Shown in pieces: positions 32,720 to 43,844 of a DNA stretch of 51,976 nt. The notes below the pieces were generated by a model, which had not been told where the DNA came from, ran no database searches, and saw only the letters and a list, made by a program, of their open reading frames with translations. The stretch spans positions 225,384-277,359 of the forward strand of contig JABFRT010000004.1 of assembly GCA_013141015.1 (NCBI GenBank), read 5' to 3'. This DNA comes from Hyphomicrobium sp. (lineage in GTDB: Bacteria; Pseudomonadota; Alphaproteobacteria; Rhizobiales; Hyphomicrobiaceae). Both the position numbers and the translations under genes were made by a program. The number at the start of each line of letters is the position of its first letter. Positions within the stretch are counted from its first letter, which is position 1.

Positions 32720-32901
32720 TTGGTATTGCCATTACACCATTCCGGCGCCAACCCCTGCCCCGTTCCAGGGCTCCCGTCCGCCTGGACACGGTCAGCCCTG
32801 CCGCCCGCATGCCGGTGCGCGGACAATGCAACACACCCCTTCCTGCCACGGCCGCACGCTAAACGCTTTTTTTTGAGCACAATGCCCCCTATATTGGGTG
32901 T

Positions 32902-33235
32902 GCCGGATTCGTCCGGCTATGGCGATAAACGCGGTCGTAATAAGCGGTTCGGACCCGGGGGCGGTACCCGGCGCCTCCACCACTTTCTTTTGCGCGCTTG
33001 GCGGCCGGCTCCCCGAAGGGGAGTCGCCAAGCGCAACAGGAATGGGGGCGAACTAGGATCGACGAACGTGTAAAGGACTTAGCTTTTGCCCGGCATGATA
33101 CCACCGTCATCGGGTCATACAGAGTAGTTGCAAATGACAACTATGCTGAGGTTGCTCTCGCTGCTTAATGCGGTGCGAGTTGCCTGAACCTAAGTCCTTG
33201 CCCCTAGCCGGGTAAGGCGCGGTCCGGAGGGCACC
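32902..33235 (+). ncRNA. ssrA: tmRNA, circularly permuted two-piece form
   Basis: Rescues stalled ribosomes and tags nascent proteins. The gene is permuted as in alphaproteobacteria: the acceptor piece comes first and ends CGCCTCC-ACCA (32972-32982); the coding piece begins at 33044 with GGGGGCG, which pairs with it over seven bases to form the acceptor stem. The tag frame is at about 33132-33170 (GCAAATGACAACTATGCTGA then GGTTGCTCTCGCTGCTTAA), giving ANDNYAEVALAA. The excised spacer has a 10-bp hairpin (32994-33034), and the 5' end has GCCGGA-TTCG-TCCGGC. A TATATT box lies at 32890-32895. The 3' end is approximate. Confidence 0.93.
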
Positions 33236-33323
33236 GGTCAACAGAAGCCCTCCACTTCTCTTGGGCGCTGGCCTGCGCTAGAAGGTGAAGCAGCGTGATC
33301 TCAGGCGCGGCCAGAGGACCAGA

Positions 33324-40466: not shown

Positions 40467-40502
40467 GGTCTGTCGATGTTTGCATTAAAGCCTGACAGAC
40501 CC
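40466..40502. other. Inverted repeat at the end of the L,D-transpeptidase gene
   Basis: GGGTCTGTC (40466-40474) pairs with GACAGACCC (40494-40502), nine perfect base pairs with a 19-base loop. It begins within the stop codon. No T-run follows, so it is not a standard Rho-independent terminator. Confidence 0.5.
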
Positions 40503-40530
40503 AAGGGTGGGCCGAGGTGAACAATGCCTC

Positions 40531-41877
40531 ATGAATAGGCGAACGGTACTTACTCTCTTGGCAACTTTGTCCACCCTGCGGAACGTGCCCCACGCGCGCG
40601 CGGCGCGGCGGTCCGTTGTTGTCATCGGTGCCGGCCTTGCGGGATTGACGGCGGCGAAAAAGCTTGCGCAAGCCGGAGCTGAGGTCACAGTCATCGAAGC
40701 GCGTGACCGGATCGGAGGGCGCATCTGGACGTCAAACGTCTGGCCCGGCCTGCCGATGGATCTCGGCGCCAGTTGGATTCATGGCACCAAAGGCAACCCA
40801 CTGACCGCACTCGCGGACGCGAGCGGGGCCAAACGGTTGGCAACCAGCTACGATGCATCCCTAGCGCTCGACGCGAAGGGCGCCCAAATCGACGTGGCCG
40901 CGCCGGCTCGCGCGACTGCAAAAATAATCAAGGCCGCGCAGAGGATGGCCGAAGGGCGCGCTTCTGACCTGTCCTTGCAGTCGGCCATCGAAGCGTCAAT
41001 CGAGTGGACGTCCGCCGATGCTGCCGGGCGGCGCCTGATACGTCATTTTGTCAACGGCACCATTGAGGCAGAGTATGGTGGCGCTTGGTCCGAGACTTCA
41101 GCTAGGTCTTTCGATGTGACCAAAGAGTTCGGCGGCGAAGATGTTCTCTTCCCGAACGGTTATCATCAGATCATCGACCACCTGGCAAAAGGCGTGACGA
41201 TCCATACGGCAACGCCTGTCGCCTCCTTAGCTCCGGCTGGCAAAGGCGTTACAGTGACGCTTCAGCATGGCGAGATTCTGCAAGCCGATCATGTGATCGT
41301 CACCGTACCACTCGGCGTGCTGAAAAAGGGTGGTATCACCTTTGCGGCACCGCTGCGCAAAGAGCGGCAAAAAGCAATCGAGACGATTGGAATGGGCGTG
41401 TTGAACAAGTGTTGGTTGCGCTTCGACCGGATCGCTTGGCCCGCTGACGTGGACTGGATCGAATGGCTTGGGCCAACACCCGGGTACTGGTCGCAATGGG
41501 CAAGCTTGACCCGGACTGCCGGCGCACCGGTACTACTGGCCTTCCATGCAGGTGACGCGGCCCGCGATATGGAAATGCTGAGCGATGCCGGCATGACGCT
41601 CGAAGCGCACCGGGCGCTGGCAGCCATGTTCGGCGCAAATTTTCCAAAGCCCTCTGGTGCACAGATCACCCGCTGGTCGCAGGACCCCTTCGCCCACGGA
41701 GCGTATTCCTTCAACGCCGTAGGAACCACGCCCGCAACCCGCAGTGACCTTGCAGGGACAGACTGGGACCGCCGCCTCATTTTCGCTGGCGAGGCCTGCG
41801 AGCCGTTGTACTTTGGCACGGCTCATGGGGCCGTTCTGTCGGGCCAGACTGCCGCCCGCACCGCCCTTGAGCTTTAG
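40531..41877 (+). CDS. FAD-dependent amine oxidase, probable Tat substrate
   Basis: A 448-residue flavin monoamine oxidase. The N-terminus MNRRTVLTLLATLSTL carries a twin-Arg motif and a hydrophobic stretch ending AHARA, consistent with Tat export of a folded flavoprotein. The dinucleotide-binding fold follows (RSVVVIGAGLAGLTAAKKLA, then VIEARDRIGGRIWTS), then GASWIHGTKGNPLTAL and the C-terminal FAGEACEPLYFGTAHGAVLSG, all typical of the polyamine/monoamine oxidase family. Start at 40531 is chosen because it begins with the twin-Arg motif; the frame opens eight codons earlier. Substrate unknown. Confidence 0.9.
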   Translation: MNRRTVLTLLATLSTLRNVPHARAARRSVVVIGAGLAGLTAAKKLAQAGAEVTVIEARDRIGGRIWTSNVWPGLPMDLGASWIHGTKGNPLTALADASGAKRLATSYDASLALDAKGAQIDVAAPARATAKIIKAAQRMAEGRASDLSLQSAIEASIEWTSADAAGRRLIRHFVNGTIEAEYGGAWSETSARSFDVTKEFGGEDVLFPNGYHQIIDHLAKGVTIHTATPVASLAPAGKGVTVTLQHGEILQADHVIVTVPLGVLKKGGITFAAPLRKERQKAIETIGMGVLNKCWLRFDRIAWPADVDWIEWLGPTPGYWSQWASLTRTAGAPVLLAFHAGDAARDMEMLSDAGMTLEAHRALAAMFGANFPKPSGAQITRWSQDPFAHGAYSFNAVGTTPATRSDLAGTDWDRRLIFAGEACEPLYFGTAHGAVLSGQTAARTALEL

Positions 41878-41984
41878 ACCCGGTGACACGCAACACAGCA
41901 GCGTCCGGTCCCGCGCCGGTTTTACCTATCTGAGCAAGCCTGCGTTGCGGAGGCAGATGCGCCACTACGGCCATCCTGCCCAAC

Positions 41985-42025
41985 CCTTCACCCACACCTA
42001 ACCTCCCCATCCATGGGAGGGGGAC
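41985..42025. repeat. REP-like palindromic repeat, family A
   Basis: CCTTCACCCACACCTAACC followed by an imperfect palindrome CTCCCCATCCATGGGAGGGG. It matches in reverse the repeat at 8911-8952, including the tail and the GGGGGAC end. The 240 bases between the amine oxidase gene and the reverse transcriptase gene hold nothing else recognisable. Confidence 0.7.
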
Positions 42026-42121
42026 CGATCGAGCCAGCCTAATGACGAACTTAGATTTTCGGAACGTAGGCACTGCTCAACAACCGATTGACGGCAGCGG
42101 CCAGCGAGTAGCGCTCCAGCC

Positions 42122-43450
42122 CTAAGCAATTTCCGTCAGCATCGCGCGCAATCTGTCGCCGCGCGCCGGATTAAGCGACGCCACCCAGCCGATGCGCCCG
42201 GCAAGATGAGCTCGGAAATCCGCATGACCGTCGCGGTTTTCAGCGGCGAGGCCAGTCTTCCGGCAATTGTGTAAAGTCGCCTTCAGTTGGTCGTAAGCAT
42301 CGCGCGGGGCGTTCGTGCGGGCATTCACGACTATGCCGGTGATTTGCTGACGCCTGCTCGATGTCATCACGCGCGTTTTGCGCTCGTTGAGCGCATAGCC
42401 TTCATCTTCCACGATACCCGCAACAGCGGCCATCAACGAATTGGTCTTTTTCGCAAAGGCTGCATCGCCGGAAAACGTCAGGTCGTCGGCGTAGCGCGAA
42501 TATCTGCCGCCGAGCGACAGTGCGAGACCCGTAAGCCGGATATCGAGCCGCCGGGCGACGAGGTTCGCCAATGCGGGTGACGTTGGCGCACCTTGCGGCA
42601 AATGCGGTTCGCAATAAGCCTGCAAAGCCGCGCGCGTATGCTTTCGGGGGCTCGAGATGCGGTCGAATACCGTCTCGGGCGTGCTCGTGCTGCATAGCCT
42701 GGTCAACACGCGCGCTGCCGCGTGCGGATAACCGAGACCGCGGAACAGCGCGTGCACCCGGCCAAGCGGCGACGTCAGAAAGAAATCGGCAATATCGAAG
42801 CAAATGACAATAGCAGCTTCGGCGTGTTGCTCGGCCCCGCTCTTGCAAGAGCGGCCTTTAACGAACCCGTGGGCGGCTTCATGCACCGGCACTGAATCAA
42901 GAATGCCGTGCAAAATCCGTTTCTGCATGGTCTTCAATCGCGGCTTCGGCGCTTCGATCAAGCGTGGCGGGCCGTGCGGCTTGGCACGAAACGCATAGAC
43001 GTAATGTTGCAGATCTGGAATTGCGGTGCGCCCGTGTTGACGGCGCTCGTCGGTGAACCAGTCGAGGTGTTCCAACGGCAGGCCGAGCCAACGCGCAACA
43101 TCGCCCGAGGTCGGCAGGGCCGGAACATCACAGTCGCTGAGGTCCGCTGTTGGCGCGAATTTCGGCGGGCGCAGTGCCATGTGAAGCGGCGCTTTACTGA
43201 GCAACGCGGATGCCGCAGCTTTCTCAAATGACGGCGCTGAAAAAATTGTCCTGACGAGTTCCGCAGCCGGCGGCGGATACGATGCCGGATTGGCCTTCAA
43301 AACTTCGGCAATGAGAGCGCGCTGCGACTTGGCGGTGGCTTTGCCGAGCGCCGTCTGCAACCGGAGCAACATCGCCCGCTCAGCCCACAGCCCCGACAGC
43401 AAAACGTTGGCAATGTTGCGGGCCACCAATCTGTGCCGTGACTTGAACAT
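42122..43450 (-). CDS. Retron-type reverse transcriptase with N-terminal extension
   Basis: A 442-residue reverse transcriptase. Visible blocks: RLIEAPKPRLKTMQKRIL (162-180, RT1), HGFVKGRS (194-201), FDIADFF (218-224, first catalytic Asp), LPQGAPTSPALANLVARRLD (284-303), the YADD catalytic box (320-323), NERKTRVM (355-362) and ITGIVVN (370-376), the retron VTG-like motif. These, with the WLGLPLEHLDWF segment near 121-132, place it with retron RTs rather than group II introns or DGRs: there is no maturase or endonuclease domain. Residues 1-110 are an extra helical region of unknown function. It is preceded on the same strand by a structured RNA that fits a retron msr-msd. Confidence 0.93.
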   Translation of the reverse strand: MFKSRHRLVARNIANVLLSGLWAERAMLLRLQTALGKATAKSQRALIAEVLKANPASYPPPAAELVRTIFSAPSFEKAAASALLSKAPLHMALRPPKFAPTADLSDCDVPALPTSGDVARWLGLPLEHLDWFTDERRQHGRTAIPDLQHYVYAFRAKPHGPPRLIEAPKPRLKTMQKRILHGILDSVPVHEAAHGFVKGRSCKSGAEQHAEAAIVICFDIADFFLTSPLGRVHALFRGLGYPHAAARVLTRLCSTSTPETVFDRISSPRKHTRAALQAYCEPHLPQGAPTSPALANLVARRLDIRLTGLALSLGGRYSRYADDLTFSGDAAFAKKTNSLMAAVAGIVEDEGYALNERKTRVMTSSRRQQITGIVVNARTNAPRDAYDQLKATLHNCRKTGLAAENRDGHADFRAHLAGRIGWVASLNPARGDRLRAMLTEIA

Positions 43451-43474
43451 CGACTGAATGGATACCTTCGACGA

Positions 43475-43642
43475 CTTTTTTGGAGCGAGCGCGCCAACCT
43501 ACCGTGTCTTGCGTGGGCAGCCGGTAGGTTCTGCCTACCCGAGGCCCACGCTGCGTCGTGCGTGTGGTGATATTGTCCCCTGGGGTAACCCCAGAGAGTC
43601 CCGGTTTCCCAGGAGTTCTTAGCGCGCCCGCCCGCCGAAAAG
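43475..43642 (-). ncRNA. Predicted retron msr-msd RNA
   Basis: Lies 24 bases upstream of the RT start, the classic retron position. Read on the minus strand: a1 (43642-43622) contains GGGCGGGCGCGC, which pairs over 12 positions (two G-U) with GCGCGCTCGCTC of a2 (43494-43483); CUUUU and AAAAG extend it by five pairs. After a1 comes UAAG, a candidate branch guanosine at 43618. The msr hairpins are UCCUGG-GAAA-CCGGGA (43614-43599) and a nine-pair stem around CUGGGG-UUA-CCCCAG (43597-43577). The msd hairpin (43551-43511) has stem GCGTGGGC/GCCCACGC and inner stem GGTAGG/CCTACC. Structure found by eye; the RNA ends are approximate. Confidence 0.8.
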
Positions 43643-43844
43643 CTAACGCGACTTTGTTACGAAGTCACCCCTGCACCAGGAAAATCCGCAGCATGGTCAG
43701 GCAAGTTGCATACTGAACTTCCGGTCAGAGGATATTCAAACCATCCCGCCATCCCCCACCCTTTTCGCCGCCCGTGAGCATCCCTGCCCCTTTATCGCCC
43801 ACTCGGCGCTGTCTTATGAGCCCAATCGCCGGTTACGACGTCTT

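What the first reader, a model, noticed from the sequence alone, without database searches (positions are those of the whole stretch)
42122..43642. A complete retron locus (reverse transcriptase plus predicted msr-msd) in an otherwise housekeeping region
Seen in the sequence: an RT with FDIADFF, YADD and ITGIVVN blocks and no maturase domain, preceded 24 bases upstream by a structured RNA with complementary ends, two hairpins and a long hairpin. Known: retrons consist of msr, msd and RT in this order and make RNA-DNA hybrid msDNA, and many act in anti-phage defence. Inferred: this is a functional retron. It sits between an amine oxidase and a cell-wall protein, with no integrase or other defence genes.
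Basis: partly seen in the sequence, partly recalled or inferred. Interest (0 to 1): 0.85.

Follow-up and report, generated by a model that had tools for sequence, protein, structure and literature searches.

The report
Solitary retron without recognisable effector
This looks like a genuine retron, a small bacterial element that copies part of its own RNA into DNA; it belongs to a little-studied group in which no toxin gene could be recognised beside it, unlike the known anti-virus retrons, so what it does is open.

Summary
Confirmed: window 42122-43628 (minus strand) is a retron by sequence, fold and RNA evidence. The 442-aa RT lies in an 18-row clade of a 51-row tree (99/98; in 100% of 200 bootstrap trees), next to type XIII rows and away from 5 group II RTs. 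It scores best against PADLOC's RT_other and RT_outgroup models; the first 18 PDB fold hits are retron RTs. An RNA model trained on 7 relatives, window left out, finds the msr-msd at 43482-43628 (E 1.7e-11), 11 of 12 held-out clade loci and 0 of 14 loci of other RTs. 22 of 30 base pairs change on both sides; 0 of 500 shuffles reach this. What stands out is the lack of a partner gene: no candidate effector recurs beside the RT in the clade loci examined, while three type XIII relatives share partner genes by the same method. The cassette is promoter, ncRNA and RT with an unclassified helical N-terminal domain; with an amine oxidase it interrupts a gene pair that is contiguous in 20 congener loci. 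msDNA and any defence role are inferred, not shown.

The parts
42122..43450 (-). Reverse transcriptase, 442 aa; RT region about residues 115-442 with YADD; unclassified helical N-terminal domain about residues 1-92
43482..43628 (-). msr-msd non-coding RNA (whole match to model R1)
   Evidence: held-out hit 66.1 bits, E 1.7e-11; covariation
43619..43628 (-). a1, 5' arm of the closing helix
   Evidence: (helix 1)
43618..43618 (-). Candidate branching guanosine directly after a1 (window CUAAG; CAAG in most clade members)
   Evidence: alignment; role inferred from the place of the priming G in known retrons (PMC6868368, passages)
43599..43614 (-). msr hairpin 1 (length varies in the clade)
43577..43598 (-). 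msr hairpin 2, strongly conserved GGGG-N-UACCCC core
   Evidence: (helix 2)
43511..43551 (-). msd long hairpin (predicted template of the msDNA)
   Evidence: (helices 3 and 4)
43502..43508 (-). GACACGG between msd hairpin and a2 (GACA or ACAC-like in many members), likely start region of cDNA synthesis
   Evidence: role inferred
43482..43497 (-). a2, 3' arm of the closing helix
43640..43668 (-). Candidate sigma-70-type promoter (GTGACT, 17 nt, TAGCTT; 7 of 12 consensus letters, weak by itself), ending 11 nt before a1
   Evidence: best site ends 10-16 nt before the RNA in 14 of 17 loci; shuffled mean 2.9, maximum 7 of 17 in 500 shuffles
40507..41877 (+). Amine oxidase with no match at E up to 1e-60 in 21 other genomes of the genus, lying in the same apparent insertion; not thought part of the retron

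Best explanation
A complete, probably active retron of the group that matches PADLOC's RT_other/RT_outgroup models. A promoter just upstream of a1 is thought to give a transcript of msr-msd plus RT mRNA. The RT would bind the msr hairpins, prime at the conserved G after a1 and copy the long hairpin into a branched msDNA of roughly 50-70 nt. The cassette carries no recognised separate effector. The most likely working form is a solitary RT-msDNA complex whose own N-terminal helical domain, or a host protein encoded elsewhere, does the downstream work; a defence role is plausible by analogy only. Shown here: RT clade, conserved and covarying RNA, no recurrent effector-like neighbour, apparent recent insertion. 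Inferred: transcription, msDNA, its length, mode of action.
For: RT: PADLOC RT_other 486.6 bits, RT_outgroup 463.6, next RT_XIII 323.7; 14 of 16 PDB sequence hits are retron RTs, 2 are DRT2 (two names read); clade 99/98 in the corrected tree (99/99 in the first); first 18 Foldseek hits are retron RTs, Ec86 TM-score 0.82-0.83 by target length. RNA: 11 of 12 held-out clade loci, 0 of 14 others; 91.2% of cells paired against 39-49% when slid, covariation score 0.600 against 0.169 in shuffles; one copy of RT and RNA in the own genome. Promoter-like site at a fixed distance in 14 of 17 loci; RNA ends 9-35 nt before the RT start in 15 loci. No partner.
Against: No msDNA or transcript data. The retron motif NAXXH lacks its Asn in 18 of 18 aligned clade RTs (window GAEQH), and the VTG triplet varies (window ITG; others LAG, VLG, IIG, IVG, LTG). 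PMC6868368 (passages) reports such substitutions in a few proven retrons. The RNA model missed 1 of 12 held-out loci (L034) and matched L037 only in part. Alignment A6 is fitted to the structure, so its pair counts lean towards it. In L039 an extra ORF separates RNA and RT, and in L040 the RT has an in-frame TGA. The absence of an effector rests on similarity searches within about 6 kb and a simple ORF caller; one of 101 neighbours matches a PADLOC defence model (mad2). The type XIII control is partial: L036 shares no neighbour.
Confidence: 0.85

Rival explanations
1. An ordinary tripartite anti-phage retron whose effector gene lies elsewhere in the genome or was lost; the retron is then a trans-acting or decayed defence system.
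For: Retrons are described as typically RT, ncRNA and toxic effector (PMC12548924, start of abstract), and that paper (passages) reports two retrons without their usual or any obvious effector. Only about 6 kb each side was examined here.
Against: The lack holds for the clade, not only here: in 101 neighbour ORFs of 18 clade loci no Pfam family matched more than 3 and no PADLOC family more than 1, while type XIII relatives L021, L023 and L024 share an upstream gene and L021 and L023 a second one (SWIM domain in L021). RT and RNA look intact.
Confidence: 0.25
2. Single-gene retron in which the N-terminal domain of the RT is the effector or the sensor arm.
For: The region (about 80-90 aa, helical) precedes the RT region in 17 of the 18 aligned RTs, weakly alike in the most distant ones, and occurs twice in tandem in L020 (44.0 bits for the copy that was not in the profile, 132.7 for the one that was), so it behaves as a module. 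PADLOC lists single-gene retron RTs with fused domains.
Against: No Pfam match and no PDB fold match (best E 1.1); no catalytic motif seen; poorly conserved (15-57% identity to the window). Myxobacterial retron RTs also have N-terminal extensions of unknown function (PMC6868368, passages).
Confidence: 0.3
3. Not a retron: an orphan RT of another class (group II-like, DGR, Abi/DRT) with a chance or regulatory hairpin upstream.
For: The Asn of NAXXH is missing in 18 of 18; NCBIfam shows weak matches to group II (42 bits) and DRT2 (36.6 bits) models besides stronger retron ones (164-168 bits), all below cut-off.
Against: Tree, fold and RNA evidence point to retrons; no maturase domain.
Confidence: 0.04

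Closest known systems
PADLOC RT_outgroup (PDLC03740) and RT_other (PDLC02949) models
   Same: Best two models for the window RT and for clade members L025, L034 and L041, the other members scanned
   Different: PADLOC-DB shows only RT models here; which ncRNA or partner it expects could not be read with these tools
Type XIII retrons
   Same: Third best PADLOC model; nearest branch in the tree (24 rows together, 96/84); occur in the same bacterial family (L021, L023, L024)
   Different: Outside the 18-row clade; L021, L023 and L024 share neighbour genes, one with a SWIM domain; model R1 finds nothing in 6 of 6 type XIII-like loci
Retron Ec86 (Eco1)
   Same: Nearest solved structure by sequence and fold; same overall msr-msd plan (recalled for Ec86)
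   Different: Ec86 is solved in complex with an effector (title of 7v9x); its RT chain is about 320 aa, without room for the N-terminal domain
Myxobacterial retrons Mx162, Sa163, Mx65, Ne144
   Same: RTs with an extended N-terminus of unknown function; Mx65 also has a substitution at the Asn of NAXXH (PMC6868368, passages)
   Different: Not compared in sequence: no Myxococcota sequence was knowingly fetched; kinship untested

Membership tests
Retron | RT of the retron branch, YADD, no maturase domain | tested here: met
Retron | msr-msd RNA directly upstream: a1/a2 helix, short msr hairpins, long msd hairpin, G after a1 | tested here: met
Retron | Region X motif NAXXH | tested here: not met
   Asn absent in 18 of 18, His invariant. 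Not strictly defining: 2 of 16 proven retron RTs have substitutions at the Asn (PMC6868368, passages)
Retron | VTG triplet in motif 7 (region Y) | tested here: inconclusive
   window ITG; G invariant, V and T vary in the clade
Retron | Branched msDNA with 2'-5' link is made | not testable with these tools
   needs experiment
Tripartite retron defence system | Effector gene or fused effector domain | tested here: not met
   none recognised; the N-terminal domain is unclassified, and unlinked genes were not tested
Type XIII retron | Type XIII branch, SWIM-domain and second partner gene | tested here: not met
   partner genes seen only at L021, L023, L024
Group II intron RT | RT groups with group II RTs; maturase domain | tested here: not met
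   5 rows whose best NCBIfam model is group_II_RT_mat form a separate 100/100 branch; no maturase domain
DGR or Abi/DRT RT | RT groups with these classes | tested here: inconclusive
   lower fold ranks (DRT2 19, DGR 25); no such rows in the tree

The most novel reading that the evidence does not exclude
A broad clade of solitary retrons (Alphaproteobacteria, Burkholderia, actinobacterial plasmids) works without any dedicated effector gene: promoter, ncRNA and an RT with its own helical module form a self-contained cassette that sits singly among metabolic genes, and the msDNA-RT complex acts on a host target or through that module, perhaps outside phage defence.
Probability: 0.35. Interest if true: 0.72.

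Novelty: new member of a known kind. Interest (0 to 1): 0.48.

Why it matters
Current models of retrons hinge on an effector that the RT-msDNA complex restrains until phage infection (PMC12548924, start of abstract). A conserved group without a recognised one tests whether that model is general. The clade also occurs in the rhizobial order (L038, L039 besides the window's family), so it is a candidate source of the msDNAs reported for 10 of 63 rhizobial isolates (cited in PMC6868368, passage seen; the link is my inference).

Tried and rejected
Rfam: no retron family at gathering scores in the window, and only two sub-threshold hits at the locus at E up to 10. Viral contigs gave no relative. 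Phage records: 28 with a match; in the 15 rows shown coverage was at most 73% and identity 22-32%. Plasmids: 131 records, 2 covering 80% or more of the query; the Burkholderia, Tsukamurella and Dietzia loci of the clade came from here. Kinship of the N-terminal domain with the Clp_N domain of the L039 ORF: HMM 4.4 bits, hhalign probability 0.4%; rejected. The first RNA alignment A4 misaligned a1 because hairpin 1 varies in length; the model was built on 7 long-hairpin members (A5). Literature: 8 of 10 searches used; in the listed results I saw no paper on this RT group; PMC12548924 (passages) reports one retron, Bth1, with no obvious effector. Mestre 2020, the 2024 retron census and the 2021 FEMS review are not held, so what they say of this group is unknown to me. 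PMC6868368, PMC8867640, PMC8934634, PMC12548924, PMC9252829 and PMC12262390 were seen as passages only.

Errors found and rows dropped: the first tree held two wrong-strand rows, L056 and L062, and a duplicate (L049). I rebuilt it without L056 and L049 and with L062 on its proper strand; the clade is the same. L040 (in-frame TGA) and L022 (fragment) were in neither tree. In one search the RT itself was displaced by an antisense ORF in L032, L035 and L038. L034 and L037 were not in the promoter count; I guessed the RNA ends of L034 and the RNA start of L037, and their gap values are not used. L042 was left out of the 101 neighbours as a near copy of L041. L032, L033 and L035, and L041 and L042, are close relatives and not independent.

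Full report
WHAT IS THERE. The ORF 43450..42122 (minus strand, 442 aa) has one Pfam family at E up to 0.001, RVT_1 (2.5e-18). PADLOC ranks RT_other (486.6 bits) and RT_outgroup (463.6) first and RT_XIII third (323.7). NCBIfam retron models match at 164-168 bits, below their cut-offs. In the PDB, 14 of 16 sequence hits at E up to 0.001 are retron RTs and 2 are DRT2. The own genome holds one match. The nearest named relative is in a Hyphomicrobium MAG (70% identity).

RT KINSHIP. A first tree of 53 RTs held two wrong-strand rows and was rebuilt with 51 rows. The window is in a clade of 18 rows, 99/98, one side of a branch in 100% of 200 bootstrap trees: eight rows of the window's family, two more of its order, three more of its class, three Burkholderia and two actinobacterial plasmid records. 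Six type XIII-like rows join it next (24 rows, 96/84). Other labelled rows fall elsewhere: Ec67 family (L067, L069), St85 family (L068, and L075 beside a St85-family effector), III-A (L071, L074), XI (L070, L072) (labels). Five rows whose best NCBIfam model is the group II RT form a separate 100/100 branch. The root is by midpoint only.

THE RNA. Folding the upstream strand gives a closing helix, two short hairpins and a long hairpin. A second hairpin with a GGGG-N-UACCCC-like core recurs upstream of clade RTs. A covariance model from 7 members was tested on loci it had not seen. It found 11 of 12 held-out clade loci, the window with 66.1 bits (E 1.7e-11), each upstream of the RT; L037 matched only in part (model 47-140) and L034 was missed. 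In 14 loci of other RT groups it found nothing at E up to 10. On the 18 matched sequences 91.2% of cells are paired, 22 of 30 pairs show changes on both sides, and no shuffle of 500 reached any of the five measures; sliding partners by 1-3 columns drops pairing to 39-49%. The alignment was fitted to the structure, which favours it; RNAalifold's own fold of that alignment has 31 pairs, 23 with double changes. The own genome holds one copy. The best sigma-70-like site ends 10-16 nt before the RNA in 14 of 17 loci; in 500 shuffles the mean was 2.9 and the maximum 7. The RNA ends 9-35 nt before the RT start in 15 loci; L039 is an exception, with an ORF between. The G after a1 stands in CAAG[A/C] in most members; known retrons use TAGC, CAGA, CAGC, GAGC or ACGC (PMC6868368, passages).

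NO PARTNER. ORFs of 90 aa or more around the RT (about 6 kb each side where the contig allows) were compared between 23 loci. Besides the RT, no group spans more than 3 loci. One of these is the type XIII upstream gene of L021, L023 and L024; L021 and L023 share a second gene, and the first has a SWIM domain in L021. This is a positive control, though a partial one: L036, also type XIII-like, shares nothing. The other three-locus groups are one that includes the window's LysR-type regulator (L032, L035, window, at different places), one of ORFs antisense to the RT (L032, L035, L038), and one of L033, L041, L042. Of 101 neighbour ORFs from 18 clade loci (up to three each side, 130 aa or more) no Pfam family matched more than 3, and three PADLOC families matched one ORF each: two oxidoreductase- or desaturase-like and one mad2. 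Of ten neighbours scanned one by one the Pfam matches are varied, mostly metabolic; in PADLOC one of ten, a monooxygenase, gave two weak matches (2e-5 and 1e-4). ORFs of 30 aa or more within 1.5 kb were shared only by L033 with L035 and L041 with L042, apart from one weak match (L017 with window, E 9e-5). In L039 an ORF with a Clp_N domain (9.1e-11) lies between RNA and RT, and that RT frame lacks the N-terminal domain; a frame break there is possible.

N-TERMINAL DOMAIN. Residues 1-92 or so are predicted as helices. No Pfam match at E up to 0.1, no PDB fold match (best E 1.1). L020 carries it twice in tandem.

HOW IT CAME HERE. The MepK-like gene is found in 95 of 102 family genomes at E up to 1e-80. 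In the 20 same-genus loci fetched besides the own one (L085-L104) the L,D-transpeptidase gene lies directly before it and OxyR after it, with no match to the RT or the amine oxidase between them; in 10 of the 20 the gap between match ends is 207-312 nt. The genus has 21 other genomes in the set; the one without a fetched locus is G058. In the window about 3.3 kb with amine oxidase and retron lies between, and the conserved leader of the MepK-like gene resumes near 43775 (by eye). The amine oxidase has no match at E up to 1e-60 in the 21 other genomes. G+C of the RT (60.9%) is like the window's (60.0%).

MECHANISM. Inferred: transcript, RT binding, priming at the G after a1, copying of the long hairpin, msDNA of about 50-70 nt. 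What follows is open: I put 0.3 on action through the N-terminal domain, 0.25 on an unlinked or lost effector, and the rest mostly on host targets or other roles.

NOVELTY. The RT group is already modelled in PADLOC, so this is a new member of a known kind. In eight searches of the held library I saw no paper on the group, but the main classification papers are not held. The rebuilt tree did not change my odds.

Noticed in passing
window 40467-43775: About 3.3 kb with amine oxidase and retron interrupts an L,D-transpeptidase/MepK-like gene pair that is contiguous in 20 congener loci.
   Followed up: yes
L020:6419-8080: The RT of this relative carries the N-terminal domain twice in tandem.
   Followed up: partly
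L039:6956-7534: ORF with a Clp_N domain between the ncRNA and an RT frame that lacks the N-terminal domain; possible frame break.
   Followed up: partly
L040 (G988): RT related to this clade with one in-frame TGA (L029) but an ncRNA that matches the model, of which it is a training row.
   Followed up: no
L021, L023, L024: Type XIII-like retrons in the same bacterial family, with shared upstream genes and different upstream RNA folds.
   Followed up: partly
L036 upstream of 5578: Very long, stable predicted hairpin before a type XIII-like RT of 602 aa in Methylobacterium.
   Followed up: no
window 32863-33256: Alphaproteobacterial permuted tmRNA; ordinary.
   Followed up: no
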